A stretch of DNA of 64,000 nucleotides. It comes from Climacium dendroides (lineage: Eukaryota > Streptophyta > Bryopsida > Hypnales > Climaciaceae). Under the pieces are notes generated by a model. That model was not told where the DNA came from and ran no database searches. It saw only the letters and a program-made list of their open reading frames with translations. The translations under genes were made by a program, and so were the position numbers. Location: assembly GCA_950106755.1 (NCBI GenBank), contig OX467082.1, positions 2,232,001 to 2,296,000 on the forward strand, in the 5' to 3' direction. Below, piece by piece: positions 1 through 30,589 of this stretch. Position 1 is the first letter of the stretch; every line of letters begins with the position of its first letter.

Positions 1-455
1 TCCTTACTTACTATTATATCTATCATAAATACTACGTAGATACTCTCTTAAAACACTCCCAATTATTCTTATCCTTATTGCCAATTGTTATCATGTTATT
101 TCATTTTATCCTATTGGCTATAAGTCTTTATCACTCTTTATACTAATTATTATCATGTTTTATTTATTTATTTAGTTAGTTTTAATATATATTTTCTCAC
201 TCATTAGTTTAACCCTCTTAATTTACTTTGAGAATTACCAAAATTTTCTAATTAATACTACAAAATGAAAATCCATTTATGCCTATTATGTTAAATTCAC
301 TCTCCTTACAATTATAATTATTTTAGATATCTAATTTTATTTTTAATTATATATATATATTTTTTCTTTCTTTTTCTTTTGTATGAAATATTATTATTAT
401 TATTATTATTATTTAGTTTCACCTATACTATTATTAATGCCATAGATTAATATCA
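1..455 (-). repeat. Putative start of the 3' LTR of element 1 (cut by window edge)
   Basis: Directly after the polypurine tract the minus strand begins with TGATATT, as expected for an LTR starting in TG. The sequence is very AT-rich with a (TAA)n-like stretch near 395-413. It holds three CCAAT/ATTGG words, including one CCTATTGG near 110. I could not align it with the proposed 5' LTR, possibly because only its first 455 bp are visible. Confidence 0.4.
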
Positions 456-472
456 TTCTCCCCCCCCAACCA
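456..472 (-). other. Polypurine tract of element 1
   Basis: A run of eight G residues within a purine-rich stretch on the minus strand lies about 10 bp after the end of the integrase frame and immediately before a TG dinucleotide. This is the expected place for the plus-strand primer of an LTR retrotransposon. Confidence 0.6.
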
Positions 473-482
473 CCGATTGAAT

Positions 483-2066
483 TTACACCTCCCCCACGCC
501 ATCATTGAAGCTGGCCCCGGCTGAACTATGATATAGGCGCAACCGATAGCCATTGATACGAGTAGGAAGAAGTTTACCTTCAAAATCTTGCAATTGGGCA
601 GATCCATTGGGATTCATATTTACAATAACATAGGGACCCAACCAATGGATTTGAAATTTCCCAGGGAATTTAAGAAATCTACTATCATATAATAATACTA
701 AATCGCCCTCTTTAAATTGCTTAGGATGGAGCTTACTATCATAAAATGATTTACGTTTTTGTTGAGCAACAAAAGTATTATACACAGCCTCTCGTCTCTC
801 CTCATCCAAATGTTCCAATTGGCTAAGCCTAGCTTCTAAACTAGGAACATCTCCTAACCTATTGGCAATTGCTATTCTTAAGGAAGGTATCTCAAATTCA
901 ATTGGAAGAATAGCTTCCTGCCCATATACCAATTGGAATGGTGTAAACTTAGTAGTGACTTTATAGGCAGTACGATAAGCCCAAAGAGCTCCCCATAATT
1001 TTTCATCTTAATCGGTTCCAGATCCCGAAATTGTTTTAGTTAAAATATTACATAATAAACCATTTGTTTTTTCTGTCTGCCCATTGGCTCGAGGATGGTA
1101 AGGGCTAGTTTTACGATGTTTAATCATGAATTTATTGGTTAATGTTTCAATTGTTTCATTCAAAAAGTGAGTACCCCTATCACTTATTAACTCAATTGGA
1201 CAACCAAATCTTGAAATTATATTTTCGTATAAAAACCTAGCTACCGATTGAGCATCATTATTTTTAGTGGCCATGGCCTCTGCCCATTTAGTGGCGTAGT
1301 CCGTTGCAACTAAAATATAACGCTTTCTACCACGTTTACTAGGTGGAGCTATTGGACCAACAAAGTCAATCCCCCACTTCTCAAATGGTGCTAAAGCCAA
1401 TAGGGGATGTAATGGCATGGCTTTAGTGGGTGTAGGACGGCCCACACGTTGGCACGGATCACAAGTCCGGGCAAAATGGTGTGCGTCTTTAAAAAGTGTT
1501 GGCCACCAATAGCCAGCCATTAAAACTTTACGGGTGGTAAGTTCTCCCGCAAAATGTCCCCCACACCCATTGGTATGACATCCCTCTAAAATTAAAGGTA
1601 TTTCATTAGAAAATATACAACGTCTTAATATCCCATCGGTGCCTTTTTTATATAAAACATCATCAATTAAAGTATAAGGAGCACATTGATGTAAAAGATG
1701 TTTAATTTGTTTATCACTTAATTGACTTGGGATTTGGTTTGTTTTTAAATATTCTAATATATTTTTATATTCCGATTGGACTACCTCAACCACAAACAAT
1801 TGACCATCAGGTAATTCATCATCAATTGGTACAATGTTAGAGTTAGGTGTTGGTTCCAATCGGGATAAATGATCGGCATTGGCATGTGTTTTGCCAGGCC
1901 TAACTACAATTGAAAATTTAAACTCTTGTAAGAGTAATACCCAACGAGCCAATCGGCCACTTAAATCTGGCTTATTAATTAAATATTTTAATGCATCGTG
2001 ATCAACATAAAATGTAAATGGATATCCCAATAGGTAATGACGAAACTTTTTAACAGCGAAAATCAT
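483..2066 (-). pseudogene. pol of element 1: RNase H end and integrase
   Basis: The first part (from 2066) completes RNase H with the family pattern F-R-H-Y-L-L-G and D-H-D-A-L. It continues into integrase with a zinc-binding H-x-H-type start (H-T-N-G-C-G-G-H) and C-D-P-C, then the catalytic core. The catalytic acidic residues are visible in A-T-D-Y-A, S-D-R-G-T and N-G-Q-T-E-K. An in-frame TAA at 1008-1010 cuts the C-terminal region from the last 150 residues (483-932 reads on in the same frame and ends in the usual basic/beta-rich tail, L-Y-D-S-R...G-P-Y-V-I). The frame also differs from the upstream RT/RNase H part, indicating a single-base slip near 2055. Integrase would insert the cDNA into host chromatin; this copy cannot make it in one piece. 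Confidence 0.9.
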
Positions 2067-2748
2067 TCCTTAGTGCCTCACGTTCAGTAGTAGTATAATT
2101 TTTCTCTGCCGCTATCAATTGTCTACTTGCAAAATAAATTGGGTGGTCCATATTCTTTTTATCCTTTTGACTTAGGACACAACCCAATGCTATGTTGGAA
2201 GCATCCACATAAACATGGAATGGTTCATTCCAATTGGGAGGAATTAATACTGGAGCAGTACTTAAACGTTCTTTTAGAGTAATAAATGCTTTGGTACACT
2301 CTAGTGTCCATATAGGACTAGCACCTTTTTCTAATTTTTTTAATAAATTTGTTAAAGGAGCTGCATGGGTAGCAAAATCCTTAACCGCTCTCCTATAATA
2401 ACTCCCAAGACTAACAAAACTTCTAACATCCGTTATAGTTTTAGGTTGTGGAGTATTTACAATTAAATCAATTTTATCAGGGTCAGTACTTATTCCCTCT
2501 TTACTCACAATATGTCCCAATAGTTTACCATATGGCACCGCAAATTGACATTTGGCCGCATTAAGAGAAATGCCATATTTATTACATTGACTAAAACAAA
2601 GAGCTAATTGGGCTGAATGGTCCTCTTTAGTACCAAAAACACAAAAGTCATCCAAGAAAATCTCCATGAATTTGCGGAGAAATTCTTGGAAGGCTACCGT
2701 GACTATTCTTTGAAAAGTGGCCAGTCCATTACAAACCCCAAATGGCAT
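2050..2748 (-). pseudogene. pol of element 1: reverse transcriptase C-part and RNase H
   Basis: The frame opens at M-P-F-G-V-C-N, the conserved RT block before the active site. It carries the active-site motif as F-L-D-D-F, then the connection region and RNase H (Y-V-D-A-S-N with the first catalytic Asp, and the E of T-E-R-E-A). It is in the same frame as the upstream protease/RT part but separated from it by a TAA at 2770-2772. It ends at 2050 through a one-base slip relative to the integrase frame. In the family the enzyme copies element RNA into DNA in cytoplasmic particles and degrades the template. Here the break lies between the fingers and palm of RT, so the copy is inactive in cis. 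Confidence 0.9.
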
Positions 2749-2769
2749 TCTTCTATGAGCATACGTACC

Positions 2770-4815
2770 TTAATCGGTAGTAAAAGTAGTCAACAATTGG
2801 TCTTTTAATGCTATACTAATTTGATTGTATCCGGAGAAATCGTCTAAAAATGAATACATTTCATGACCCGCTACCGAATCCAAAACACTATCGGTAAATG
2901 GCAATGGAAAATAGTCTTTTTTAGTGGCTGCGTTTAATTTCCGATAATCCTGACATATACAAATTTTCCCATTTTTCTTAGGAACCACAACAATTGGACT
3001 CACCCATTTGCTAAATGGAACGGGATAGATAAATCCTATTTCCAGAAGTTTATCTATCTCTTCCTTCACCAATAGTGAATACTTAGGATTTAATCGATGT
3101 TGCCTTTGGCGAACCAGCTTAGCGTTTTCCTCTAAGGTTATGTGGTGTTCACACACCTCGGGGGGTACACCCTTTAAATCCTTATAGGAAAAAACAAAAG
3201 TCCCTAAATAAGCCTTAAAGAAATTTAACCATTGATTTAATTCCTCTACTTTTAATTCCCGACTTATTTGTATTATTTTTGGATCATCTTCGGTACCAAT
3301 ATTTAAATCCATACATAAATCTTTAGGAACATGTTTTTCAATTGGGATAGACTCAGAAGAATAATCCCATTGATCTTCTGTTTCCCAAGTAGGTTCTAAC
3401 TCCGATTGGTTATCAGATATCCCATAGACAGCCTTATCCATTAACCAATAGGCAATGGCCTGATCGGAATCCTCACTGTCTTTACAAGGCAGTAAGTATT
3501 CCCCAGGCCCAATTTCTTTAAAGGTTCTACCAATTGGTGATTTGGTTGGTTTTATTACCCTATGAAATTGTACCCGATTGGCATCTACATTTTCCTCATC
3601 TCCTAAACTATAATCAAAATCACTAGTATGTTCAAAAGATTCCCATTGTGTTTCCCCATGATATTTTTTTGAATACATTTGTAATTTAACCTTAGATGAA
3701 CCAGAACCAATTGTCAATAAACCCCTACCCCAATCATCTTTAGCTTTGGCTTGATAGAGCCAAGGCCGACCCAGTAATATAGGATATGACGTATTAAGAG
3801 ACAATTGTTGGAACACAATATAATCTATATAATAAATGATACCGGATATCATGGTTTTTAATTTAGGTAAAATACCTTTTGGAATTATCCTACTCTGGTC
3901 AGCCATACGTAGGACTAATTTAGTCTCTTGTAACCCATTTAATTGTAAACTAGTCATAGTATCCCAATTCATTAAATTTACACTCGACCCTCCATCAACT
4001 TGTACACCACTTATTAGAACCCCATCAATTGTTACATCAATCATAGGAGCGCCAGGATCTAGACTAATAGCAACTTCATTTACCATTTTTCTAGTTCTTT
4101 TTCTAATTAAATTTTCCCGAAGTGTAGCCCTACATTGAGGTGCTACTCCCAACAATTGTTTTATGGATATGTCAGCTTTTAAATTTCCTAGATCTTCTAA
4201 AATGTCATAACCAATTGTTCCATGCATAATACCAATTGGTTTTGCATTTCTATTCCGCCTAAACCGATTGGTCTTATTCGGTAGTACTTGACTTCCGATC
4301 GGTACTGATTGCTGACCTATTGGTACTGTTTGCTTTTTCCAATTGGGATGATCTGGTGCTATATCCAATGCATCACCAATTGGTTTAGCCATATTTATTA
4401 AACTCGGATCTAAAGATGGATTTTCTTCGATGGGATGTTTAAAAATTTCAAGAGCTGGTTGATACTCTTGAAATTTCCCATTGGCCACAGGATTTAAAGT
4501 CCTCAAATTTGACATCACAGGGTCTACCAATGGGACTGGTTGACTCAATGGAATATTTTGAGGTACCCAATGGGTTTCTTTCTACACTATAACTCCATTG
4601 TTTTGATTTCCTAACAATTTATGTTCATTATTAACAATTGGTAAGGTAGTGGTCCCTGATTGAATCAGTGGTGCCACCTCTTGTATTTGAGTTTCTACAT
4701 TCCCATTGGAACTTTTATTCCCTATTGGTAAGCTCACATCTGCATTAATTATAAACTGACCTCCCCATTGGTAATTGTTTATTAGCCCTTGCTCTAGTAG
4801 TAACTTGTTTGACAT
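2770..4815 (-). pseudogene. pol of element 1: protease and reverse transcriptase N-part
   Basis: This frame overlaps the end of gag by about 70 bp in a different frame, a layout that needs ribosomal frameshifting. It contains one in-frame TAG at 4582-4584, so the recognisable pol starts after 4581. A retropepsin-like site is seen as V-D-G-G-S-S-V-N-L (Asp followed by Gly-Gly-Ser, as in many plant Ty3 proteases). RT follows, with P-I-V-V-V-P-K-K-N-G-K, C-Q-D-Y-R-K-L-N and Y-S-F-L-D-D-F-S-G-Y-N-Q-I. It stops at a TAA at 2770-2772. The tripeptide P-I-G recurs many times because the DNA word CCNATTGG is read in that frame. Confidence 0.88.
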
Positions 4816-6913
4816 TTTTCATACTATCATTAGATTTCAATTGTTCTTTTAAGTCTGAATTATCACAATCACTCGATGACCCCACTTCATTTATTGAAAC
4901 ATGGTGAACTACTCTATCTTCAGCGAGCACTACTAATTTTGAACCGGTATTATTTTCCCGCACCATCCCATCATTATTACGTGGATTTTCCCTTTTTGGC
5001 CCATTACATTCCTCTGCAGTGTGGCCTGCTTGGTTGCAATTGCCACACAATAGAACATATGGAATGCTAGCCTTAGGATTTGGGCAATTCCTAGCGTAAT
5101 GTCCCATTTCTCTACAATTATAACATTGCACATTAGGATTTTCTTGCCAACTTGGATTATTTCCCCCATAGGTAGGATTTCCTTGACTAGGATTGCCATA
5201 AGGCATTTGATTCCACCCTTGGTTTTGACTCGTAGGATTTTGAGGAATATACTTATTGGGATTTGCATTAAACCCGCCATTGTTAAAATTCTTTGGGTTG
5301 AAATTTGGGTTAAAGTTAGAATTAAAAATCCTATTCTTGGGCACAAAATTGGGATTAAAATTATTTCCTTTATAATTGAATTGTTGAGTAAACCTATTGG
5401 GATTATTACTGTTATCATAATTGTTATTATTATTATCCACTACATATACTTGACCCATTTGGGCACGTAAATTTGCATCATTAATTAGACTCTTTTGCAA
5501 GTTGCGACAAGATTCTGTCTCATGTTTCCCATTACAAAATCTACACTTGGAAGATAAATTAGGTGGCGAGGGACAATTGTTCAACATATGGCCCTGACCT
5601 CTACAATTGTTACACCAAATATTGGCTCTATCATTTGGGCGTTGACCTTTCTTTTCTATTGCATTATTTAAATGAACGGCCAAATCCTCAAATTTATGAG
5701 TTAAGTTTAACAATTGGGATTCCATTTTATTGGTCTCTATTGGTATTGGTTTAACCACTGTTGTACCAATAGGCAAAGTTTGTACTGGTCCCGCATTGAC
5801 TGGCACTATTGGTGGTATTGACACTTGTACGGTAGAATTTGGAGGAACATAGGTAGTAGGTGGATATGGAGTTTGGTAGGGAACTACCGGTACCATCCTA
5901 TCATTAATATTAGGTCTCAATTGAGGTTGAGATTGTATAGCTATCCCATAGTTATCCTCAAAATTCACCTCCTCCCATAATTTTGCTCTTCTATATGCAT
6001 CGTTTAAGGTTCCCGGAACAATTTCTTTCACATACGTTTTTAATCTATGTGGAACTAATCCCCTTATAAAAAACCTCGTTTGCATTTGATCATTATAACC
6101 ATGACCGGCTGGAAGTCTTAAAACCAAATCTTCCAATCGGCCATAGTAAGAATCAATAGATTCTCCTAAAGACATTGTAATATCTTGTAATTGTTCACTC
6201 AACCTTTCTTCATAAGCTATTGGTCTAAATTGAGCTAAGAACTCATCTTTTAAAGTAGTCCAATTGGCAAAATGACCGGGTGCTTGGCATTGAAACCATT
6301 GTTTAGCATGGGCTTGCAACGTAACCGGAAAAATACTAAGCCAATGGGCTTCCGTTCTAGCATTATTAGCATTACATACGGTTAAAAATTCATGAATATG
6401 CCTATCGGGATCACTACCAATTTGTCCATAAAAATTTGGAAATTGCACTAAGGAATATGGCCGATCGGCTTCTTCCCCAGCCCTCATGGCCACAAGTAAG
6501 ACTTGTCGTCTAGGTTCTGCTTCACACTCCATATCTGAACAATCACTCTCAAACCAATTGATTTCTACTTCTGGTTCAGGATCTAATGGATTTAAATCAC
6601 TATTCAAGTGATGTTCAGTTTCAAAATTATCCCCACTTCCAATTGGTTCACTGTCCCGCTCAGGACTATTGGGATGTGCCGATCCGGTTATATCCACTGG
6701 ACCAATTGGTGGAAACCACTGATTATCTGGCTCCTCGTCAGAGGTGGTGTCAGACTCTACGTTATAATTTTCCCAATTGGGACTATTAGGTAATGAAACA
6801 GTCCGATTGTGTTCAAATTGATTGATACACCATTGATATCGGGAACGTGAACGTCTACGAGCCCTTGTCTCTCGAGCACTTACACTAGACTCGGATTCCC
6901 CATTATAACTCAT
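4745..6913 (-). CDS. gag: gag polyprotein of element 1, 722 aa, four zinc knuckles
   Basis: Open over 722 codons with an ATG at 6913. An acidic, Ser/Arg-rich N-terminus is followed by a capsid-like retrotransposon gag domain (about residues 150-300, with the typical W-F-x(n)-W..L..F-L..F and L-R-L-P-A-G blocks). An Asn-rich linker comes next. Four nucleocapsid-type knuckles are visible: near residue 432 (C-x2-C-x4-H-x4-C), near 459 (C-x2-C-x3-H-x4-C, a shortened form), near 594 and near 622 (both C-x2-C-x4-H-x4-C). Gag packages element RNA into virus-like particles. The stretch between the second and third knuckles is a low-complexity N/F/P repeat. This is the only undamaged element 1 frame. 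Confidence 0.88.
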   Translation of the reverse strand: MSYNGESESSVSARETRARRRSRSRYQWCINQFEHNRTVSLPNSPNWENYNVESDTTSDEEPDNQWFPPIGPVDITGSAHPNSPERDSEPIGSGDNFETEHHLNSDLNPLDPEPEVEINWFESDCSDMECEAEPRRQVLLVAMRAGEEADRPYSLVQFPNFYGQIGSDPDRHIHEFLTVCNANNARTEAHWLSIFPVTLQAHAKQWFQCQAPGHFANWTTLKDEFLAQFRPIAYEERLSEQLQDITMSLGESIDSYYGRLEDLVLRLPAGHGYNDQMQTRFFIRGLVPHRLKTYVKEIVPGTLNDAYRRAKLWEEVNFEDNYGIAIQSQPQLRPNINDRMVPVVPYQTPYPPTTYVPPNSTVQVSIPPIVPVNAGPVQTLPIGTTVVKPIPIETNKMESQLLNLTHKFEDLAVHLNNAIEKKGQRPNDRANIWCNNCRGQGHMLNNCPSPPNLSSKCRFCNGKHETESCRNLQKSLINDANLRAQMGQVYVVDNNNNNYDNSNNPNRFTQQFNYKGNNFNPNFVPKNRIFNSNFNPNFNPKNFNNGGFNANPNKYIPQNPTSQNQGWNQMPYGNPSQGNPTYGGNNPSWQENPNVQCYNCREMGHYARNCPNPKASIPYVLLCGNCNQAGHTAEECNGPKRENPRNNDGMVRENNTGSKLVVLAEDRVVHHVSINEVGSSSDCDNSDLKEQLKSNDSMKNVKQVTTRARANKQLPMGRSVYN

Positions 6914-7002
6914 GAGCTATCATCATTATCCCATATACAACCATTCCAATTAACAATTTAGGTTGAATAAATTTGATTCTTCCAATTGAAATATGAAAAT
7001 TA

Positions 7003-7025
7003 CCTCCCCAACATGGTCGCCAAAA
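7003..7025 (-). other. Putative primer-binding site of element 1
   Basis: About 90 bp upstream of the gag ATG the minus strand reads TTTTGGCGACCATGTTGGGG. The TTTGGCG start just inside the LTR resembles the primer-binding region of Athila/Tat-type elements, which commonly read TTGGCGCC there. I did not match it to a particular tRNA 3' end. Confidence 0.45.
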
Positions 7026-8100
7026 TGTAGAAGGATTTTTATTTCTTCTATAAAAATAAACCCTATTGTAGGATTCGAACACTAGGAGGTAAAATATCCC
7101 GATTGAATTGTAAAATTTATTCCCCAAAAGAAATCACCAATTGCAAGTTTATGTTTGTACAAATTTTCCTATCGTTATCCCAACAGCCAATCGGTCAGTC
7201 CCACTTATCATATCAATTGGGCTTGCATCTTTATTTTAGCCGATGGTCTTTTCTCCAATTGTTGTCTCGCTCCCAGTCCACTCCCAATTGGTTATCTTTC
7301 ACAGCACTCCAGCATCTCCCATCGGTATTCAGACTCCCGCATAACACCAATCGGTATTCTCTCTTAAAATGAATTCTCTAAATTAACTCAATTGTAAATA
7401 ATATTATTAATTCTCCCTCAATTGGTTAAGCTCTCCAGTTTCTCCAATTATATCAATTTTCTCATTTCTTGATTTACACATTTAATTCATATACTTCTCC
7501 CAATTGGTATTTTATTCATCAATAAACCATTTAATCCCAATTGGTGGTTCTTCACTCAGTTACTCAAACAATCCCAATTGGTATTTCTTGATCGACCAAC
7601 ACAACTCCCAATCGGTATATAACTCACACAGATATTCAATACAATTACAATCAACCATTAACATTCCATAGCATCCATAACCCACAATTTCCAATCGGTT
7701 TCAAACTCACACATACACAGTCACACAAAATCGCACACAAAGACAAACACAGACTCCAGAATCACTCACAATTGGCAAAACACAACTTCATATTACTCAA
7801 ACAAAACAACACAAACACACAATCGTTTTTACTTCCAAACTCTGGAAGGAGCGCTTCTTTCTCTCTTGAAGTCAACTGAGAATAACAATCGGGAAAAACC
7901 CAATACATACCAGCCAGCCAGCCACAGTTCAAAACCGCCAATGGGAAATACCTCCCCGAATCTCCTCAGCGTACCCTATCGGCAAATACAACGTACATAC
8001 CCAGTATACCCCTCCTAACTACCCTCCCGATTGATAAAACTACAATTATAACATGAAAAACTACCAATCGGCCAAACTAAAAATTGGAATTCAGTCCACA
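7026..8100 (-). repeat. Putative 5' LTR/leader of element 1
   Basis: Non-coding sequence between the primer-binding-like site and the point where CCAATTGG-type words disappear. It holds at least 15 such words in about 1.1 kb, including several exact CCAATTGG copies near 7260-7570, so word enrichment is not confined to protein-coding DNA. It ends in CTACA on the minus strand just before the primer site. The outer boundary is uncertain. Confidence 0.5.
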
Positions 8101-8415
8101 ATGGTCAGCATGAGATTAAACACTTTGACAATTAACAATTTAATGTGTATAAAAATAGGGTAAATAAACTTTGATAACATTAAAAGTTGGCAATAGTTGT
8201 GATAACTATATGGTAGAAGAATTGACGCACTTAAAGCTATTTAAAGATTCAAATCACCATAGTATATAATTTTTAAGTTAATTTATTAATTTGTCATTTT
8301 TGTGGACAATAACGTCTTGTTGACTTCTACATTCTTTGCTAAGTAATTAGTTACAATTGCCAAATTAAATTCAAAAAATGATTCAAAATAAGAATGGAAC
8401 ATTTGTCACTCTTAC
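8101..8415. other. AT-rich spacer, no gene seen
   Basis: Between the last element 1 word and the next reading frame. No repeat, RNA gene or splice-like structure was recognised. Confidence 0.4.
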
Positions 8416-9579
8416 ATGTACATATATTTAAACCCTACAATGCCAGAAGGTGGAAAAGCACAAAAGAACTTTTCTTCAATAAAGCAGTCCCCTTCAAAAA
8501 AACCACGTCTTCCGCAACGTGATGACAACCCAATTGACGAGGCTGCATCACAAGGGGTACATGCTTACACCCATTCTGAATTTTCAGAACCCTTTAAATT
8601 GGGACGCATAAGCCCATCGTTGAAGGCGGTGATGATAGAACTTGCCCCAGTTCTTCTCGGTCGCAACGCCGTTTACAAAGAGGAATTCTTCATTGAGGTG
8701 GTTGGACTTTGCGCGATAGGACTATCTCTCAGCAAAGTGCCAGCAACTCATGATGATGACATTCTCATGAAATGGCCTCCCAAAAATAGTCGGCACGAGA
8801 TAGCAGATTGTCTAGACATTGCTCAAGCTGCGCTTTTTTGCAATCACTGGTTCAAAGTGTACGGGGAGACTCCTGACAATTCGTACTTCTCTTTGAAGTA
8901 CTTGCGGGGGTGCTTTGCTACGTATGAGCTCAAAATTGAAGTGAATTGGGTGGAGGAGGCATTACAACGGCGTCAATCGCGGAAAGGCCATGCTGCACGC
9001 AACCCTAAGAAACTTTGAGCAGTGGCGTTGCGGCAGCAGATACAAACGCTATGCCATATCATTGAAACCGTCGAAGCAGACAAGGGGCCTGTTCAGAATG
9101 CTTTGAATGCCGCCAAAGCAAGCTTGCGGACATGCGAAGTGAATGAAGACCGCGCCTTGAAGATCGAGAATACTCTTGTTTCAGAGCTTGAAAATGCCAA
9201 AAAAGGCTTGGCGGATTTATTCTCAGACGACGATTCTGAGAATTTGACTTCCCTCTTTAGCAAGGCAATTGCTGAAGCCAAATCTCTACAACGCGAAGGG
9301 AAGGCAAGAGAGGCAGCAGCCAAAAAAGTAGAAGCCGGAGCTGTGCTTGCAAGTATAAATGAGACGACCAAAAAAACTTTGCGCTTTGAAGATTCTATTT
9401 CAGAGTTGCAAGACTCTAAAATACCGCAAGCACGACTGGAGGTTGAAAATGCACATCAAGCAACGGCTGCGGCTAAGGAAAATTTAAGGCAGCTAACTCT
9501 TTGTCCAGGAAATGTTTCCAGAAATCCATCATCATTTGTTACTAATAGAGTTATATTGACCCAAAATTGTGTGTATTAA
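8416..9579 (+). pseudogene. Coiled-coil protein of unknown function, split by one TGA
   Basis: Two collinear frames in the same phase are separated by a single TGA at about 9016-9018. The first part (200 aa) is basic and Ser/Pro-rich at the N-terminus, then has a globular region with a W-rich segment. The second part (about 185 aa) is a long Ala/Lys/Glu-rich coiled coil. I recognise no family. GC content is higher than the spacer on both sides, which supports past coding use. Its position beside the decayed transposase gene on the opposite strand suggests it is an accessory gene of the same DNA transposon, but nothing in the sequence proves that link. Confidence 0.45.
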
Positions 9580-10020: not shown

Positions 10021-13000
10021 TTATGATGCATCCTGATTTTGTACCAAAGGAACATTCTCTTCATTGGTTTCTCTTAGCACCCACCTCTGTCCTTGACGCA
10101 CACGCCCTTCCCGCCACTGACGGAGCTTTACTGCAGCCTCAGATGTGTTCCACGCTTGTCGTCGACGTTGCGCCAATTCCACATCTTCAACTACACTCAC
10201 AGTTTCACTTGCTTCTGCTTCAACAATCTTCCTAGCATACCTATGCTGAATATTCATGTACCAATGTTGGTATTGCTATACCACAATACTAGTTCGATCT
10301 TTGCTGCCTTCATGTTGCGTATGTGCTTAACTTGCTGCTTTAGCAACATGATGGGATTTCTCCATCCCTTGGCAACTCCAAACTGACAAACTTCCATATT
10401 TCTCCACAAACCATGCTCTGTGCCTTACAATTACATGCTGCAAAAGCAATGAAGTGAAATGAACACTACCAAGATGAATCATAAACTTGCTTTCAAAAAT
10501 TGACAAAGAGCTTGAAGAAACTAGCACAATGTTTTCATTGGATTTGAACTTACCATGTAATGTGTAACATGATTTTCTCCAAATGCTTTCAAGAAAGCTT
10601 TTCCAAATTGATCCATCTTAGCCTTGCAAGCACGTCTTTGCTCCTCTGTTAGCACAAGCCCAGTTAGGTAGGGCTGTAGTTCTTCTAATGCTTCCCATAC
10701 ATAAAAGCGATTTCTTCGTGCTTGTCCATTCTCCAAATTGTTACCCTCAGACATTACCACATCTTTCCATACTTTGTCTTGGTTTGACCAGGAACTAGGC
10801 TGGAACAACCTACTTGCCACAACTCCACTTAAGCTGGGCTTCATCACCACGTTACCTAATTTTCCTGACAGTTTTTCATCCTTTTTTAATTGGCAATTTC
10901 CTCCTTCCACTCCAATAGCAGATAGAGACTTCTCCATGGACTCAATTACCAAGGCCCTCCTCTGTTCATCTTGCATATTCCAAATAAAAACAAAGTGAAG
11001 ATGAAGAATTTTCTCAATCATTCGAACCTGTGCATGTAAAGTACACATGTGTGTCCAGGACAAGGGAATTGGCAGCACCATTTTCCACCGAGGGTGAGTG
11101 GCAGCATCACACGGTTCTTCTTCAATCCCTGTCGCAAATAGTCCACCTTGCCACTTGCCTTTCTCTCAGTTTGCATGCTCACGATGGGCACTGGAAGCTG
11201 TAGCACACCTCCTTGGTTGTTCTCTTACTTGTTCACAGTATATGCAATTCATCTTGCTGGAAGGGCCATGTTGAAGCCCGTGCATGCATTTGATGGTTTT
11301 CATGTTTGCACTCATGTGCCATTCCACCCTAAATCGTCCAACACCATTGACAAGGAGTTCTTGGCCGTTGCTTTGTGCTGCAATTACCTCTGGAAATTTG
11401 TTTTTTTTTAAAACCCAGTCAAGCACATCGTATGACTCTTTACCAACTTGAAAGCATGCAATTGGCCATATCTCCTGCTCTGATTGCATTGAGAAATATC
11501 TATCATCATTCTTCTGAATCTCAGGATCCAATGCCCGATTCATCAATGTCAAGCTAACACGCTCATATTTCTTGCCTTGCTGTACTTCCGCTTCATCCAG
11601 CTTCAGCACAAAGATTAACGGTCCCCCGTTGCACTCTGCGATCGCATATTATTTTTTTGACAGCAGAACCAGTAGTTGTAGTTGGAAAATAATATAGCAG
11701 GAGTTTTGATGCAAGTTGCACAAAACTTCCAATGTCAAAATAGACTTACAAGTCGAAATTAATTAATTGCAAGTGGGTGATTGCAAGAAAGACTTAACGT
11801 GTTTTGTCACACTCTACTTTTTTATTTTTGTTTTGGCCATAACTTCTACGTTTTGGCTCCAAATGACTCAAAATTTATAGGAAAGCTACTGATAACCACT
11901 ATACACCTTTCACTATTTTTTGAGATTTTTCAAAAATAATTTACTATTTTTAAACAGCCCCGATAATTTCTCACAATGGCTGATTTAGGGTTTTTTTGCA
12001 CTATGTTACAAAGGAAAAAATCGAATTTTGATCTGAAATTTGGAGAGGATGGTCTTCTAGTAGACTTATAGCTACTGTACAAAGTATTTTGAAAAATTCT
12101 TATTTTTATGTGGTGTACAAGTCCACAAAGAGAGCTCCTTTTTGCAATTTTTTTCAAAGGTAAGAAACATTATTTTGGTGAGTTTTTTGGTCAAAACCCA
12201 TCACCAAAAAGTTTTCTCACATGATTGATTTTTTATATATTTTTAAAAAGAAAATCCTATTTTTTACAAATTAAAATGTCAGAAGTGGTATTTTCTTCAC
12301 CGGTTTTAGGATTTCAAAAAACCGGTGAAGAAAATACCACTTCTGACATTTTAATTTGTAAAAAATAGGATTTTCTTTTTAAAAATATATAAAAAATCAA
12401 TCATGTGAGAAAACTTTTTGGTGATGGGTTTTGACTAAAAAACTCACCAAAATAATGTTTCTTACCTTTGAAAAAAATTGCAAAAAGGAGCTCTCTTTGT
12501 GGACTTGTACACCACATAAAAATAAGAATTTTTCAAAATACTTTGTACAGTAGCTATAAGTCTACTAGAAGACCATCCTCTCCAAATTTCAGATCAAAAT
12601 TCGATTTTTTCCTTTGTAACATAGTGCAAAAGAACCCTAAATCAGCCATTGTGAGAAATTATCGGGGCTGTTTAAAAATAGTAAATTATTTTTGAAAAAT
12701 CTCAAAAAATAGGGAAAGGTGTATAATGGTTATCAGTAGCTTTCCTATAAATTTTGAGTCATTTGGAGCCAAAACGTAGAAGTTATGGCCAAAACAAAAA
12801 TAAAAAAGTAGAGTGTGACAAAAACGCAACAAATAGTACAAGTGTTTCTTGCAATCACCCAAGTAGAAAGGATGGAGTAATTACCTTCAACTGTGATGTT
12901 GTAAAATAGCACCATTGATTGTTGAACAACTTCAAGATCCACAAACAAATTGTTCTTGCTGTGAAGAATCACCTCTTTCTCTGGCTTAATCTCCTTCCTA

Positions 13001-14248
13001 CCCTGACGAATTGCTGGAATTACCCGTCTACCTTCAAGATGGTAGTACTCACCAATAAATTGAGGCAGCTTAGCATTCATATTCTGTCGCAAGGTAGCTA
13101 GTCGATGTGGAGGAGGTAGAATGCTTGAAGTCACACCAGGAGCAATCAATCCAATCCAATTTTTTAGTGTTCGATAGATTGCCCGGTACCCTCGATGAGT
13201 CACCCCTGCTCCATCACAAGCATCTAGCATTGTATCAGGCCCCACAATGTCACCAATCTTTTGGAGCACCTTCTTTGTTATGTTCCCGCTTGCTTGATTC
13301 ATTCTCGGCTAGTCAATAAGTGCATTGGCCTCACCTACAGATAAAATACTAGCAACTGCTGCAGCAGTTTCACTTTGAGCTTCAAAATCTTCCATCAACC
13401 GTTTCTGTGACCCACAAAGTCTATTACACATTTGCACGGTCTCCACTAGAGATGGTTGCAATTGTGCTCTAAGCATGGTCCTTCGTCGCTTAGCATGTCC
13501 AGATCCACTAGCAAGCTCATGTAGACTCTTCATTCTCCCTCGGACCCGTTGCCGAAAGCCCAATGGGGTCTTCACCATCGACCTGCACTTTGTTTCCAGT
13601 CTTCCATAATCAGCTTGGCACTTCTGTAATTTCTCTTCTAACACCCATACCTCTTCTTTATATTGTAAGTCTTTTGAAGCCACACTATTTTCTACATGAG
13701 TTAACAACCCCTTCAAATCTAAGCATGTGCTTTCTAAAGCTCTCACATCGCTTTTTAGTTGCTTGCACTCCTCTACGTGATATAGTCGATGCGGTCCAAA
13801 CTTCTGCGTTCAGTTCACAATATTGGCTTTGCAACTTTTGTATTTCATTCTCATAAGCCCTCACTTTCTCTTCTAGCAACTGAATGCTACTCTGCAATGA
13901 TTCAGCAATTGGCTTCCATTGTACATCTAAATCACTGTCAGGTGGCGCACATTTCAAGCGTTTTGTATAACCCAGCATCCCACCCTCACCATGGCACAAG
14001 AACTCTAAATATTGCTTGGTAGTTGTGAATTGCGGTGTGGAATTGGTGGCAGGGTCAATAGGATACAAGCTGCCATCAACCCACAGATCAATGTGTGTTT
14101 GGCCTTCTATTCTTCGTGCAGGGAAACTTGAACGACTCGCTTGTTCTTCAATAATCTTCCTCTTCCGAATGATAGGAGCATACTTCTTATCCATCTGAAT
14201 TTGAGCCACATAACTACCTATCGTGTTTGTCACATCTCGCAAAGCCAT
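10021..14248 (-). pseudogene. KDZ-like (RNase H-fold) transposase gene, multi-exon, decayed
   Basis: The start (14248) leads into about 190 residues ending in a coiled coil that continues after a one-base slip near 13800. A TAG at about 13316-13318 precedes the block at 13302. The frame there ends at a clean donor (...ACAGTTGAAG|GTAATT, minus strand) near 12885 and resumes after an acceptor (GATCGCAG) near 11640, in phase. The exon from 11640 carries V-L-K-L-D-E-A-E-V (candidate catalytic Asp) and a C-x2-C pair (N-C-I-Y-C-E-Q-V). After a TGA near 11187 it runs to another intron at 10557. The next exon holds H-V-I-V-R-H-R-A and Y-G-S-L-S-V-W-S-C-Q-G-M-E-K, a block I associate with Kyakuja-Dileera-Zisupton-type transposases (candidate catalytic Glu). 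Two further frame breaks follow near 10310. Family assignment is from motif memory only. Confidence 0.55.
11774..12861. mobile_element. 1.09-kb foldback (hairpin) element in a transposase intron
   Basis: Two arms of about 530 bp are near-identical reverse complements around a 10-bp loop (12308-12317, AGGATTTCAA). The ends are TGGGTGATTGCAAGAAA at 11774 and its complement ending at 12861. The identical 75-codon frames on the two strands (11930-12157 and 12468-12695) are a by-product of arm identity, not genes. The right arm has about 10 extra bases near its outer end. The arms contain the phrase GAAGTTATGGCCAAAAC, similar in style to other hairpins here. It sits wholly within an intron of the transposase-like gene. 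I saw no terminal gene and no clear target duplication. Confidence 0.9.
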
Positions 14249-14715
14249 GCTGAAGCATCCTAAACCTCTCTCTCCAATTTCATGCGGCCAACTAATAGTA
14301 TCATGTCATAACTGTTTGAAGTCCACGCAAGCAAGGGCAACATAGAACAAAAGGTGTCCCGCCAAAATTCCTCGAGGTGGCAACTTTGGCGCCATTTTCT
14401 TGACTCCAACAAATGCATAAAAAATTACTAGTACCTCCTTTTTGGAACATCATTGGACATACAAGACTCTTGGCCTCTTTCGAAAGCTTACAGCACGGCT
14501 AAGATACACGTCAACCTAGTTCTAGCACAGTTGTTTCCACGTCAACCCACTTCCGGATGCAAATGTACTTACTGCCTTACTGATTATGACCAATTCCTTT
14601 ACTGCCCATGGTATCCAAGCCTTGCTGGCCACATGCCCTTCTTGAAAAGTCAATGCTAAACTGCTGCCCATCGGAGGCTTATAGGGCCCTTCCTTGACCC
14701 CAAACTGTCTCTAAT
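14249..14715. other. Spacer upstream of the transposase-like gene and 5' junction of element 2
   Basis: Presumed promoter side of the minus-strand transposase gene. No coding block recognised. Element 2 begins abruptly at about 14715 inside its reverse-transcriptase region. Confidence 0.35.
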
Positions 14716-14723
14716 GAGGACAT

Positions 14724-16696
14724 GTGGTGAGCCGAAGAGGGTTAGAGGTAGACCTAGACAAGGTCAAAGCCATACTCACCTTGTTCGCTCCAACCTATGT
14801 ACGGGAAATCCGAGGGTTCCTTGGATGTGTGGGGTATTATTGGAGGTTCATAGATGGGTATGCCCGGAAAGCTACTCCGCTCACGGAACTGCTAAAGAGG
14901 GAGACCGAGTATTTGTGGAGTACGGAACGGCAAGAAGCGTTTGAAGCCTTGAAATCAGTTCTAGTCAAAGCCCCTATTTTGTCTTCGCCGGATTGGTCCA
15001 AGGAGTTTTATGTTACCTGAGATGCTTCTGGATGGTGTCTAGGAGCAATCCTCTGGCAATACAATAGTAATTAGAGAGAATGCCCCATCTACTACTCCAG
15101 CAAGCAAATGAGTTTGGCGGAAAGATAGTACACCACCACGGAATGGGAGACGTTAGCAGTGGTCTATGCATGCAGGAAGTTCCGGCATTACCTACTTGGG
15201 TATTGGGTGGTGTTCCATACGAATCATGATTCGCTCAAGTATCTAGTAAACAAACCTGACCTTTCCGGAAGAATAGCAAGATGGGTGTTATTACTTCAAG
15301 AATTCAATTATGAGGTGAAGGTGAAATCTAGAAAGTCTAATGCAAATGCAAACTACCTCTCTAGATTTCGGAGACATAATTCATTGGAGGACATTTCTAC
15401 AGAATTTCCGGATGACTTTCTGGAAGTTCTGGAAGAACCTGTGTTCTATCTCGAGGGAGGGACCAGATCGGATTATCAGGACATCATCGATTTTCTTGTA
15501 GACGGAAGATACCCGGAGGAATTAAATAGGGAGGAGAAAGTCATGTTCTACCACAAGGTTGGCCCTTACTCACTAATCAAGGGGACCCTATTCAAAATGG
15601 GAGCGGATGACCAGCTGAGGCGATGCGTAGAAACCAAGGATCAGAAGAAGATAATGCGAGCCTTGCATTCCAGAATTTCTGGAGGACATTTCGCAACCAT
15701 CACCACAGTAAACCGGATCCGAGCAGCCGGATATTGGTGGCCAACCATTGGCCACTCGTCCCTATCATACCTATCGCCCCATTTGAGAAGTGGAGAATAG
15801 ATTTCATAGGCCCCCTTTCTCCTGTTACGACTAGGAGGAAGAAATACATCATCTTGGCAACGGATTATGCTACCAAATGGGTGGAAGCATGGGCCACACG
15901 GAACAATTCCGCCCCGACTACGGTATCGTTCCTATTTATAGAAATCCTGATAAGGTTTGGACACTCACTGGAGTTAGTCAGTGATCGAGGATTCCATTTC
16001 TTGAATGATATCATTCAGAATATCACTAAGAGATATCTGATCACCCACCGGAAGACCACTCCTTACAACCCAAGGGCAAATGGTTTGACGGAACGAGCCA
16101 ATGGAATAGTTGAAAAGGTTTTGAATAAAACCATCTCCGAGCACAAGACGGATTGGGATCTTAAACTTCCGTCTGCTGTCCACGCGTACAACACCTTACA
16201 GAAGACTACCACTGGAAGAAGTCCATTTTTTCTTGTATTTGGACAGGAGACCACCCATGGGATCGAATTAGAGGTAGAGTCGCATCGGGTAATGACGATC
16301 CAGAATGCTATCCGGACCAGCGATCCGGACATCCAACTGATGGCTATTGAAGACTTGGAAGAAGCAAGACTGGTGGCCCTCGGCAACACAAGGAAGGTAC
16401 AAGAAAGGAGAAAGGTAGATCATGACAAGAAACTGCCAGCCAATCATGGGATCAAGGAAGGAGAGTTAATTTTGTTATATGACAGCCATTACCGGATTTT
16501 TCCAGGTAAACTCCACACCAAATGGATGGGTCCATATAGAGTACGACAGTTATTCCCTAATGGATCCATACAGCTGGAAGATCTTCAAGGGGTTTGGTTG
16601 GACACGAGGGTGAACAAATCTCGAGTCAAGAAGTACGAACAGGAGTCGGATTCCCAAGAAAAAGCCAAGGATGTTTGCGGGGACTCTCACAGTTGA
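14724..16696 (+). pseudogene. pol fragment of element 2: RT end, RNase H, integrase
   Basis: Begins at the post-active-site RT block (G-F-L-G..Y-Y-W-R-F-I), then RNase H with a TGA just before the first catalytic Asp block (about 15018) and further stops near 15075-15130. It is open again from 15159 with F-R-H-Y-L-L-G and N-H-D-S-L-K-Y-L. The integrase zinc domain is incomplete: after A-G-Y-W-W-P-T the C-x2-C half is missing and the frame shifts near 15745. The core is intact, with acidic residues in A-T-D-Y-A, S-D-R-G-F and N-G-L-T-E-R, and continues to 16696. At 16149-16160 this copy reads GAT TGG GAT, which serves as an internal reference for the TAA in element 1. Confidence 0.85.
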
Positions 16697-17136
16697 AAAA
16701 GGGGTAATGTGGGAATCCGGAATCCAGAGATGGATCAAGATTAAGGGAGCTAGGTGAGAAAAATAGAGAAAAATTTTAAAAATTATAGTTAGAACGTGAT
16801 TTTCATGTGAGAAAATCCAAACTAGAAAATAGGCGTTCCGGCAAAATCTGGAACCGGAACTTATCCGGAATCCGGAATTACCCAGAACGCAGGAACCTAC
16901 CGTATAGACCCTGGAGCTACGGGAATAGGATACCGTTAGTATAACTGACCTGTAGCCGTTATCCTAATTACCATAGGGAGACGGTTTAGTATTTAAGTTG
17001 TTTGCCGAGGATTTTCATTTCCACCTTTCTGTTTTGTTTTTCTGAGACTGTCCACGTGAGTAGTTGAGAGAAAGAGTGGTGAGTTAGCGACTGAATTAGG
17101 GTTACTTTTCTCTCCTCTCATTCTTACTTAGGTCTT
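16695..17136 (+). promoter_or_regulatory. Polypurine tract, LTR-like start and promoter-like segment of element 2
   Basis: GAAAAAGGGGTAA at 16695-16707 directly follows the integrase stop and precedes TGTGGGAATCCGG, the expected pattern for a polypurine tract and LTR start. Four TCCGGA-type words lie within the next 170 bp. A TATTTAAG box near 16993 and a pyrimidine-rich segment precede the ATG at 17137. If the LTR truly starts at 16708, the ORF below lies inside or beyond the LTR rather than between pol and the tract. Confidence 0.55.
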
Positions 17137-19005
17137 ATGGCATCAGGAGCGGTACAGAAGGTAGTTGTATTTGTCCGGAATATCTCTCCGGCTATTCCAG
17201 ACAATCCGGAACTACACAAACAGTTAGAGGAGGATTTGACCAAGTTAGGGTGTGTCGGTTTGTTACACCGACCATGGAACCTTAAGAGTGAGGATATGAT
17301 CCAGAAACTACTTCATGGGGTTCCGAATCAATATGAGCTCACTCTGAGAGGACGGCCAGTCACGTGGACGGAGGACATCTGGGCAGATGTCTATCAGTTC
17401 CGGAAGAGTGGAAACGGGTTAGCGTCGAGGACGGACCGTTTTGTAGCCGGTAAGTTCACAGGGTCTGCAAACCCTGAAGACGGATTCACTATTAGCGAAT
17501 GCAAGGACGAGAGACATAGGCAAGTACTAGAGTTCCTCATTCCCATACTGTACCCGGAAAAACCTACACAGGTCACCGTTACGATGGCCAATACCATTTT
17601 CGGGGCTATGGAGAACCGAGCCGTGCATTGGGGTAGAGTCATAGCCGAGTTAGTTTCTAAACTAGCAGAGCATGTAACCCGCGCAAAGGCAAGTCTAGTT
17701 AGCACCTACTTGTTCCATTTATACCACCAACAGGAATTTTTGAGCGCTGCAGAAATAATCCAGTACGACACCGGAAAGGCTATTGTCATACGGATTTTTT
17801 GGAGAAGAAGCGGAAGATCCAGTCGAGTCGGAACCCGAAGAGCGCCCCGAGGAACCCTTGACCGATCCAAGGAATAAGAAGAGGAAGTCAACCGATCCGG
17901 GGTCGTGAACCAAACCACCGGCGATGGAGAGGGGGGAGTCAAGTAAAGGACCGGAAGTAGAATCCGAATCAGCATTTTTCAATGATGGGTTCGAATGGAT
18001 ACGCGAGGCCAAGGTACTCCACGATAGTCTGGCGGATCTGATGATAGACACGGCGGAAGTTTTGAAGGTGGAACCGGATCAGATTGTGGAAGCCGTCAAG
18101 CAACTGTCCAAACCGAAAGATCTAAAGTGAAGGGAGGACCGGATTCAGGAGTTGGAGGCGGAACGGAACCAACTCCAGGCCCAACTAAATTGGGCGGAAG
18201 GGGAGATGGCAACTTCAAAGGAGAAAGAGAAGGAGGTCCTCTCTCTTGTGAAGAACCTATCCGAAGCAATCGACATCAAGGCCGACGTCATCATGAAAGC
18301 GGCTTTGTTCGATTCAAAGATGATATCGGAGAGCCACATCATTGGGACCAAGATAGTGACCATCCTCGTAGACTTCACTGCAAGGATAGAGCGGGTCTTA
18401 AAGAGCTACAACAGCTACTGGCGGCCATCGATCCAAATTAGGGGATGGATTTCTCAACCTTTCCAAAACTCCCTTTTGTCTTAGGTACTTCAGGGAGACC
18501 AGTAGCAGATCGAGTAGCTTGAATGGAGGGACTGAGAGGAATACTCACGCCAGTTGAGCCTACTTCCAGCAAGATACGAATGACGGAGTTAAATTTGAGG
18601 CCAACTTCGGAACTGGAACATGAGTCTAGTGTGAAATTGGTTCCGATACCATCCAAAGTCTCAACTCCGGAAATTCCTAGGGTGCAAACAGTACCCAACC
18701 TATTGAGGGGATCGTTCAAAGTTCTAGGGCAGTAGGTTAGAGGAGATTTCATCAACCGGATCGATGGAATGACCAATCCGGCCCGGATGAATCCGGAAGG
18801 ATTCTCGCATATGCAAGAGTTTACACCCGAAAAGAGGAGCGAATCCACAATACTGGAGAAGACACCGTCAGAGAAGGAGAAGGAAGTTCAAGTCATTAAA
18901 GATTCCGAAGAAGAAAGTGCACATTCCACTTCCGGAACGGAGGAAGATAGTGATCCGTCTCCCACTCTCCCACAGCGCGCCACATCCAGACTCGAGCGGC
19001 AATGA
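17137..19005 (+). pseudogene. Extra ORF of element 2, unknown family
   Basis: Starts with ATG at 17137 and is open for about 210 residues before a frame slip near 17790. Collinear pieces then follow in other frames: an acidic region, a helical segment around 17940-18130 and a coiled coil around 18150-18440, with more Ser/Glu-rich pieces to 19005. The N-terminal domain (W-T-E-D-I-W, G-K-F, I-L-Y-P-E-K-P-T-Q-V-T-V-T) is clearly homologous to that at 28828-29196, and the coiled-coil part to 29740-30216. This defines a protein of roughly 450 residues: globular N-domain, acidic linker, coiled-coil C-region. I cannot name the fold. Being restricted to the TCCGGA-rich elements, it is a candidate for an element-encoded regulatory or DNA-binding protein. 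Confidence 0.6.
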
Positions 19006-19609: not shown

Positions 19610-20255
19610 CAGCAATCCGGATAAGAAGGTCGAGGTCTCTACGAGTCCAGAACTAGAAAGGTTCTGTGCGGAGATAAGCAACCACCAGAGGAAAAGAACT
19701 TCCGCTACTCCGGAAGGTCTACCAACCTCCCCCTTTGTACATTGTCTTCTCCTTGAAAACCTACTCCTTTGAATCTATAAGTTCGGATCCGTCGTTGTAG
19801 TAAGAGAGGTGTGAGAATTTCTTTGTGTGACCTGCTTATGGATCGGCCAATCCGGAAGCTGTGAGAGAATACTCCTCCCTCCTCATACAACTACGTTGTC
19901 TAGGGTGTGTTGTTTATTTAAAAATGCAGAGAGGTTAGTTACACAAGTGGTGAGTCCCCACCCCTTTCTAGACCAAGGGCGGACCCTCTGAGGGTAAAAT
20001 AGAGGTAACAAAAACCGGGAGTTAAAAAAGACGGAACTAGGTTCCGGAGGTGGTCCAGATCCGGATCCAATTCTGGAACGTACTAAGTTTCCAGAACGAG
20101 GTAAGGAAGTGAAACAAGGAGAATTAAGGGTCTAGTTAAGATCTGGATACTTCTAATTCAAACAATATCATACTAGAGCTCCCTGGAACGATAATTTGTG
20201 TCATCTTGCAACAATTTGTCGTTGTAAGGATACTTACGGCTAACTGCGCGTACGA
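19610..20255 (+). repeat. Left arm of a large inverted repeat (3' region of element 2)
   Basis: Reverse complement of 30590-31140. Matching landmarks are the GGTCTACCAACCTCC block near 19715, GTGGTGAGTCCCCACCCC near 19949, GGGCGGACCCTCTGAGGGT near 19978 and TTACGGCTAACTGCGCGTACGAC at the end (20232-20254). The arms differ by substitutions and short indels, so they are not recent duplicates. Inverted position relative to the second copy is unexpected, because both adjoining extra ORFs are on the plus strand. Confidence 0.8.
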
Positions 20256-20259
20256 CACT

Positions 20260-30216: not shown

Positions 30217-30589
30217 GGCGACCCGGCCCTTAAACCTACGAATAGAGAAAGGAATTGAAATTTAAGCAAGGTTTTTGAGCAGATGGAACCCGATCCGAAG
30301 AGTCCCACCATAGGATCCAAGTTGTAAACTAGTTAAGATTGTACATACTAAAGAGGTTTAACACGGATCCGGATCCTGTTCCAATCTAGTTAGCAGTAGA
30401 TAGGAACGGAAGTCCGGCCCGAATGGTAGCGGAATTCCATGACACTTTTTGCCTTTTTGTACTTTAGGGTTTTTGTATATAAACTAATCCCTACAAAGAG
30501 AATTGGGAGAGAGAAAGTCTTCTTTTGTAACCTTCTTGAGTTTTCTATTCACTTGTTGTATGTCTCTTGTCGTACGCGCAGTTAGCCGT

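What the first reader, a model, noticed from the sequence alone, without database searches (positions are those of the whole stretch)
483..8100. A retrotransposon saturated with one palindromic word, CCAATTGG (CCNATTGG/CCAATNGG)
By hand I count about 44 sites of the 8-bp class CCNATTGG/CCAATNGG in about 7.6 kb and about 90 of the core ATTGG/CCAAT. At the local base composition I would expect fewer than one and about 16. The word appears in gag, pol and the non-coding 5' region. Within the proteins it is read in different frames, giving P-I-G in some places and N-W or Q-L in others, so it cannot be a codon or peptide preference. It stops sharply at the element end near 8.1 kb. The variants keep one half-site ATTGG and one flanking CC, as a binding site for a dimeric protein would. 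Established parallel: VANC proteins of Arabidopsis VANDAL transposons bind short words dispersed in their own elements and lift silencing. I know of no such case for a Ty3/gypsy element.
Basis: partly seen in the sequence, partly recalled or inferred. Interest (0 to 1): 0.93.

Follow-up and report, generated by a model that had tools for sequence, protein, structure and literature searches.

The report
Retrotransposons carrying family-specific DNA address words
A jumping gene in a moss-like plant genome is peppered from end to end with one short mirror-image DNA word, and its sister families carry different words that appear to be kept by natural selection, which suggests that each family is recognised by its own matching protein.

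Summary
Confirmed, and larger than claimed. The window copy is part of a 12.8-kb Ty3/gypsy element with 1,075-bp LTRs (window 8100 to about 4.7 kb beyond the left edge). It holds 98 CCNATNGG sites, against 0 in 0.9 kb and 1 in 6.8 kb of flank. The excess survives dinucleotide and synonymous-codon nulls, uses all three frames and is nearly strand-symmetric.
All eight family loci typed carry it. Sister clades in the same genome carry other palindromes: CTATAG (6 of 6 loci), CCNANTNGG (16 of 16), GNCNANTNGNC or a reduced form (4 of 7), TCCGGA (5 of 5). Eight copia loci show none. Words are conserved between relatives, also at fourfold-degenerate sites, and in four of five clades rarely lie within 20 bp of each other.
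Best reading: binding sites of dimeric, family-specific proteins, working like VANC/VANDAL but in retrotransposons, in coding DNA and without tandem arrays. The candidate reader is a fast-evolving third ORF (about 1,000 codons) between pol and the 3' LTR. No binding or anti-silencing was shown. Three loci of one clade have this ORF but no detectable word.

The parts
1..8100 (-). Part of the 12.8-kb Ty3/gypsy element that lies in the window; the rest, including ORF3 and the 3' LTR, lies left of the window (to about -4699, contig C1:2227301)
   Evidence: alignment with a second copy and LTR self-match
7026..8100 (-). 5' LTR, 1075 bp, 99.4% identical to the 3' LTR outside the window; 12 CCNATNGG sites
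2773..4581 (-). protease region and first part of reverse transcriptase; 12 sites
2053..2769 (-). rest of reverse transcriptase and RNase H (stop before it, other frame after it in this copy); 1 site in 2071-2769
1011..2069 (-). end of RNase H, integrase zinc-binding and core domains; 7 sites
486..1007 (-). end of pol after the integrase core, no Pfam match; 3 sites
110..8071 (.). the 45 sites of CCNATTGG/CCAATNGG (52 of CCNATNGG in 1-8100)
14718..16696 (+). pol remnant of a second, related Ty3/gypsy element (clade 5), whose word is TCCGGA
   Evidence: blastn about 67% to L047 at 14788-16715 and word profile
17095..17877 (+). 260-codon ORF after the clade-5 pol, in the place of ORF3 but with no detected homology to ORF3 of clades 1-4
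   Evidence: the L051 relative gave no BLAST hit to the other ORF3s; no Pfam match

Best explanation
The word is a binding site on double-stranded DNA for a dimeric, family-specific protein that sits all along the element. Shown: the word is strongly enriched, family-specific, palindromic, nearly strand-symmetric, conserved beyond expectation, and in four of five clades spaced as if each site were occupied. Each family has changed word and reader together, so that it helps only itself. Odds by step: selected dsDNA dimer site 0.85; reader is ORF3 0.45; purpose is anti-silencing 0.4.
For: Enrichment against dinucleotide and synonymous nulls. Word by clade: CCNATNGG in 8 of 8, CTATAG in 6 of 6, CCNANTNGG in 16 of 16, TCCGGA in 5 of 5 loci typed; in the integrase tree clades 1, 2, 3 and 5 each keep to their own word. 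No word in 8 of 8 copia loci. Conservation: clade-3 words kept in 57-79% of cases against 13-17% for the same letters in other orders at 72-75% identity; fourfold sites inside words identical 8 of 8 v 130 of 297. Close pairs depleted in clades 1-4. ORF3: homologous in clades 1-4, 20-33% identical against 58-61% for pol and 44-46% for gag in the pairs compared; a hit to it downstream of 36 of 37 typed clade 1-4 loci; invariant Cys and His in its C-terminal part.
Against: No binding data. L041, L043 and L044 have an ORF3 hit but no detectable word, and L045 has a word but no ORF3 hit. The clade-5 protein in that place is not detectably related and clade 5 shows no shortage of close pairs (12 v 8.5). 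No known DNA-binding domain in ORF3: only sub-threshold Pfam hits. Word conservation is small or absent in some pairs (L014/L016 15 of 25 v 45 of 87; L014 to L020 10 of 24 v 42 of 84; L016 to L020 14 of 26 v 66 of 95; ratio 0.98 for clade-3 pairs at 85-92% identity) and absent among the eight near-identical clade-1 copies (11 v 11.9). Nothing here measures methylation or expression.
Confidence: 0.42

Rival explanations
1. One reading: each element clade has adapted its sequence to a different host transcription or chromatin factor that helps it.
For: Explains ORF3 without a word and a word without ORF3. Palindromes of this length suit plant factors that bind as dimers (recalled). ORF3 has no recognised DNA-binding domain.
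Against: Five related words in one genome, each confined to one branch, would need several host readers, each followed by one clade only. Clades 1 and 3 share half-sites CCnA/TnGG and differ by one base of spacing, which looks like divergence of one reader lineage. The rest of the window does not lack or favour CCNATNGG (8 v 7.9).
Confidence: 0.3
2. The reader is Gag or integrase, and the word serves packaging, nuclear import or protection of the element's cDNA or integration complex.
For: Both are made by the element and differ between clades (gag 44-46%, pol 58-61% identity). A use on cDNA would need sites along the whole molecule, as found.
Against: Copia elements with the same needs show no word (8 of 8), nor do three related gypsy loci with gag and pol (L041, L043, L044). 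Two insertion sites looked at are not words.
Confidence: 0.12
3. An RNA-level signal in the genomic RNA (dimerisation, packaging or translation).
For: Palindromes can pair between RNA copies; a few variants are strand-biased (CAATCG 19 v 35 in the window copy and 20 v 43 in a second copy; CCAACT 4 v 26 in clade 3).
Against: Most non-palindromic variants are equally frequent on both strands (for example CCAAT 95 v ATTGG 105; CAATAG 31 v CTATTG 36; CCAAAT 31 v ATTTGG 31). The clade-3 and clade-4 words have free positions between the half-sites.
Confidence: 0.06
4. Mutation bias, biased repair or repeat expansion in this lineage, without function.
For: Some palindromes can arise by biased processes (general knowledge). 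Near-identical copies show no extra conservation.
Against: Different words in sister clades living in the same nuclei, no word in copia loci, conservation at fourfold sites, shortage of close pairs, no tandem arrangement (gaps).
Confidence: 0.04

Closest known systems
VANC/VANDAL anti-silencing system of Arabidopsis (PMC5735166: outline, section 5 part 1 of 2 and section 11 read; PMC10398659: passages read)
   Same: Related transposon families in one genome each have their own short motif; in VANDAL an element-encoded protein binds it and removes methylation from its own family, and protein and target evolve together
   Different: VANDAL is a DNA transposon; VANC21's motif YAGTATTAY lies in noncoding regions and targets form tandem repeats. 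Here: LTR retrotransposons, palindromes in coding and noncoding DNA in all frames, no tandem arrays, reader not proven
Plant Ty3/gypsy elements with extra ORFs between pol and 3' LTR, such as Athila, Grande, RIRE2, Retand (PMC7264820: part 1 of 3 of the text read; PMC11963269: passages read)
   Same: A long extra coding region between pol and the 3' LTR, of unknown function; the TRP28 domain of Retand is predicted by its author to bind DNA
   Different: In Retand the ORF is antisense and other; ORF3 here is in sense. No family-specific palindromic word is mentioned in the passages that I saw
Transposase_32 (PF20167), putative plant transposon protein
   Same: Weak similarity of the N-terminal part of clade-4 ORF3 (E 0.0005)
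   Different: Far below the curated cut-off; no match for the clade-1 ORF3
DNA uptake sequences of bacteria (recalled)
   Same: A short word spread through coding DNA in several frames because a protein reads it
   Different: Genome-wide, bacterial and used for DNA uptake

Membership tests
Ty3/gypsy LTR retrotransposon | LTRs and the order gag, RT, RNase H, integrase | tested here: met
   (5-bp flank repeat ACCAT in the window copy)
VANC/VANDAL system | Carrier is a VANDAL (MULE) DNA transposon | tested here: not met
   it is an LTR retrotransposon
VANC/VANDAL system | Family-specific short motifs that differ between related families | tested here: met
VANC/VANDAL system | Motifs concentrated in noncoding DNA, often as tandem repeats | tested here: not met
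   sites in gag, pol, ORF3 and LTR at 4.6-9.3 per kb; close pairs depleted
VANC/VANDAL system | Element-encoded protein related to VANC | not tested
   no VANC sequence was compared; ORF3 has no Pfam match above cut-off
VANC/VANDAL system | Protein binds the motif and causes loss of DNA methylation | not testable with these tools
   needs binding and methylation data
Transposase_32 (PF20167) | Pfam match above the curated cut-off | tested here: not met
   L053, L055, L054 pieces 20.5, 19.3, 17.9 bits against 45
Retand lineage | Antisense ORF with TRP28 domain between pol and 3' LTR | tested here: not met
   main ORF is in sense; no such domain among Pfam hits of the ORF3 pieces scanned; antisense frames were listed but not scanned

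The most novel reading that the evidence does not exclude
A lineage of plant retrotransposons has an address system: each family writes its own palindromic word across its whole length, coding parts included, and encodes in its third ORF a fast-evolving dimeric reader of that word. This would give a function to long unexplained extra ORFs between pol and the 3' LTR, and would be a second, independent origin of sequence-specific self-recognition by transposons.
Probability: 0.4. Interest if true: 0.96.

Novelty: new variant of a known kind. Interest (0 to 1): 0.91.

Why it matters
A DNA-level signal strong enough to shape gag and pol proteins, and replaced as a unit between sister families in one genome, is unusual.

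Tried and rejected
Codon or peptide preference: rejected by synonymous shuffles and frame use. RNA motif: disfavoured by strand counts. Chance or composition: rejected. Self-targeted integration: two insertion sites looked at, neither a word. Extra conservation among the eight near-identical copies: none. A word in L041/L043/L044: nothing clear. One search used patterns that could not contain the known word and was replaced, which stopped with a script error after printing six of eight sets (shuffled controls for five); one search covered the other two. In some searches joined clade-4 and clade-5 stretches counted a 1.5-kb overlap twice; one search repeats the gap test and main counts without it (clade 4 close pairs 1 v 4.3 instead of 1 v 6.5; clade 5 12 v 8.5 instead of 14 v 10.5). 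Structure of the clade-5 ORF piece from one sequence: mean pLDDT 38.7, not usable. Viral contigs: no relative of the integrase. Gag homologs: 6 proteins, without DNA. Of 66 homologous proteins only P0012 has three or more P-I-G. A chromovirus control was asked for and not answered.

Full report
OBSERVATION. In 483-8100 there are 44 against 1.37 in dinucleotide shuffles (maximum 6 of 400), and 107 ATTGG/CCAAT against 32.7. A blind count of k-mers puts the same word on top: CAATTG 47 v 4.2, CCAATTG 48 v 2.4, CCAATCGG 12 v 0.16. In the coding parts 32 sites stand against 9.2 in synonymous shuffles (maximum 17 of 1000), in frames 8/14/10.

THE ELEMENT. Pfam finds gag, RT, RNase H and integrase in Ty3/gypsy order on the minus strand. 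The genome that holds the window (412.6 Mb, 123 contigs, unnamed) let me follow the copy past the window's edge. Relatives of its pol include a Physcomitrium patens and a Riccia protein, and weaker Silene and Tanacetum ones, so the host looks like a bryophyte. The copy is 12.8 kb long with 1,075-bp LTRs 99.4% identical, from window 8100 to about -4699, with ACCAT on both sides. It holds 98 CCNATNGG sites; the 900 bp and 6.8 kb beside it hold 0 and 1. Density (slightly wider class): LTR 9.3 per kb, gag 4.6, RT part 6.0, integrase part 6.3, spacer 5.8, ORF3 8.6; the 108-bp leader has none. pol of this copy has stops and a frame break; I only describe it.

FAMILY AND SISTERS. The integrase query gave 115 places. 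Per 4 kb: CCNATNGG 19-24 against about 1 in 8 of 8 clade-1 loci; CTATAG 13-21 against about 1 in 6 of 6 clade-2 loci (three of these lie close together on one contig and are near-identical, so not independent); CCNANTNGG 14-30 against about 1.2 in 16 of 16 clade-3 loci; TCCGGA 13-16 against about 1.9 in 5 of 5 clade-5 loci. Of 7 clade-4 loci, L039 has GNCNANTNGNC 16 v 0.4, L040, L042 and L045 have CAANTTG 12-18 against about 2.4 with fewer full words, and L041, L043 and L044 show nothing clear. On an integrase tree clades 1, 2, 3 and 5 each keep to their word; clades 1 and 2 are sisters with support 0.975; inside clade 4 the branching is weakly supported, and the three loci without a word are not one branch. 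The EM matrices are partly symmetric by method, so I rest palindromy on exact counts of palindromic words.

CONTROLS. With one search over palindromic patterns, the 39 loci with a word reach z 7.3-25.3 (L039 15.6, where wider patterns were allowed). The 8 best of 150 copia hits reach 3.9-5.1. Window blocks outside the two gypsy elements reach 7.3 at most, which touches the low end of the word loci, except a GTGCAC block (12.0 and 8.5) explained by tandem-like repeats. Synonymous shuffles in open frames: clade-1 copy CCNATNGG 31 v 9.7, clade 2 CWATWG 72 v 28.3 and CTATAG 23 v 6.7, clade 3 CCNANTNGG 24 v 8.0 (500 shuffles each, no shuffle reaching the observed count). The chromovirus control did not complete.

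SELECTION. Between L021 and its clade-3 relatives at 72-75% identity, words are kept in 15 of 19, 13 of 18, 15 of 26, 13 of 23 and 10 of 14 cases, against 13-17% for the same six letters in other orders. The pairs share loci and are not independent. At 78-89% identity the picture is mixed: 15 of 25 v 45 of 87 and v 45 of 95, 10 of 14 v 42 of 84, but 10 of 24 v 42 of 84 and 14 of 26 v 66 of 95 for words lost in L020. Clade 2: 33 of 54 v 98 of 230, 33 of 44 v 99 of 197. Clade 1: 22 of 23 v 46 of 61. With nearby windows as control, word conservation exceeds expectation in all identity bands but one (clade 3, 85-92%: 614 v 627). Fourfold-degenerate sites inside words are more often identical than outside in all 10 comparisons, best 8 of 8 v 130 of 297, p=0.0016; four of ten reach p<0.05. 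Among eight near-identical clade-1 copies word cores vary as much as the rest (11 v 11.9), as expected if most of those changes came after insertion. Words of different clades lie at different places, except clades 1 and 3, 7 of 23 v 1.9 (1 of 1000 shifts).

WHAT IT LOOKS LIKE. Most non-palindromic variants are equally common on both strands, which speaks for double-stranded DNA; exceptions are CAATCG (19 v 35; 20 v 43 in a second copy), CCAATTGA (12 v 3) and, in clade 3, CCAACT (4 v 26). Start-to-start gaps under 20 bp are depleted in clade 1 (1 v 8.4), clade 2 (12 v 25.9), clade 3 (1 v 5.2) and clade 4 (1 v 4.3, P 0.04), not in clade 5 (12 v 8.5). Gaps of 20-49 bp are in excess in clades 1 and 2. 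This is what bulky proteins side by side would select. Clades 1 and 3 have the same half-sites CCnA and TnGG with spacer 0 and 1.

THE CANDIDATE READER. Between pol and the 3' LTR lies a sense ORF of 830-1,010 codons, with 1-3 stops in the four copies read. It is homologous in clades 1-4 (BLAST E 3e-36 to 1e-115) at 20-33% identity; in the pairs compared pol has 58-61% and gag 44-46%. It has an N-terminal part (not found in the clade-2 copy read), a heptad-rich middle and a C-terminal part in which three Cys and two His are invariant. The genome search gave 147 hits to the C-terminal part (a lower bound). Pfam gives only sub-threshold hits: HALZ leucine zipper 0.0045, Transposase_32 0.0005. 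Against it: L041, L043 and L044 carry it without a word, and clade 5 has another protein in its place.

A HINT FROM ELSEWHERE. In frame 0 the clade-1 word reads P-I-G. Among 66 homologous proteins one, P0012 (JGI source, 60% identical), has six P-I-G against 0.3 expected, mostly at other places than the window copy, as a clade-1-like word in another sample would leave.

MECHANISM. Selected, family-specific dimer sites along the whole element, an element-encoded accessory protein that diverges with them, and the published VANC precedent make self-recognition against silencing the most likely use. Shown: the sites, their specificity and their conservation. Inferred: binding, reader and purpose. 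Rivals are a host reader, Gag or integrase, an RNA signal, and mutation bias.

LITERATURE. Eight searches of open PubMed Central papers showed in their listings no report of a family-specific palindromic word in a retrotransposon; CCAATTGG with retrotransposon gave one unrelated paper (listing only). Papers in subscription journals and preprints are not covered. PMC12859917 (passages) reports a 2025 lecture on unpublished VANC-DNA structures suggesting coevolution.

VERDICT. Real, strong, and not found described. It works most likely like VANC/VANDAL but is not a member of that system. New variant of a known kind, with an unproven reader.

Noticed in passing
window 14718-17877 and 28695-30216: Remnants of a second, related Ty3/gypsy element (clade 5) with its own word TCCGGA/CCGGA, and ORF3-like reading frames after pol in both stretches.
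   Followed up: partly
window 11802-12823: Inverted repeat with two 506-nt arms, 99% complementary, only 10 nt apart.
   Followed up: no
window 19704-20257 and 30568-31106: Inverted arms 81-94% complementary about 10-11 kb apart, perhaps the ends of a DNA transposon or two inverted copies.
   Followed up: no
window 43694-44551 and 53621-54854: Two clusters of irregular repeats of about 150-400 bp holding GGTGCAC, which explain the GTGCAC peak.
   Followed up: no
window 8392-9579 (+) and 13309-14305 (-): Reading frames with coiled-coil-like stretches beside the element; no significant match to ORF3 for 8392-9018.
   Followed up: partly
genome G000: C1 49.76-49.83 Mb, C2 4.02-4.22, C3 47.58-47.70, C16 0.67-1.06, C34 28.61-28.69, C35 2.30-2.45, C37 3.35-3.43, C38 2.65-2.82, C39 15.15-15.34, C40 2.44-2.55, C41 26.22-26.25: Copia hits crowd in one interval on each of 11 contigs, many with 1330-codon open frames: candidate centromeres.
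   Followed up: no
genome G000: C34:27725098/27734078, C1:32101874/32110583, C40:3872429/3879012, C1:10712962/10703666, C38:22309628/22302241: ORF3 hits in pairs 6-10 kb apart with no integrase hit listed nearby, perhaps non-autonomous relatives; not examined for words.
   Followed up: no
genome G000: C1:226632, C35:215356, C37:260044, C40:228810, C44:39657: ORF3 relatives with an open 717-codon frame about 215-260 kb from the start of four large contigs (and on a small one), alike in score, perhaps a chromosome-end repeat.
   Followed up: no
L020 and L024: A clade-3 subgroup with about half as many words (14-15) as its relatives, as if losing them.
   Followed up: partly
L011, L012, L013 (G000:C40 12.25-12.39 Mb): Three near-identical clade-2 copies spaced about 66.8 kb apart, as in a tandem segmental duplication.
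   Followed up: no
P0012: A JGI-source protein 60% identical to the pol query with six P-I-G against 0.3 expected, the imprint of a clade-1-like word elsewhere.
   Followed up: partly
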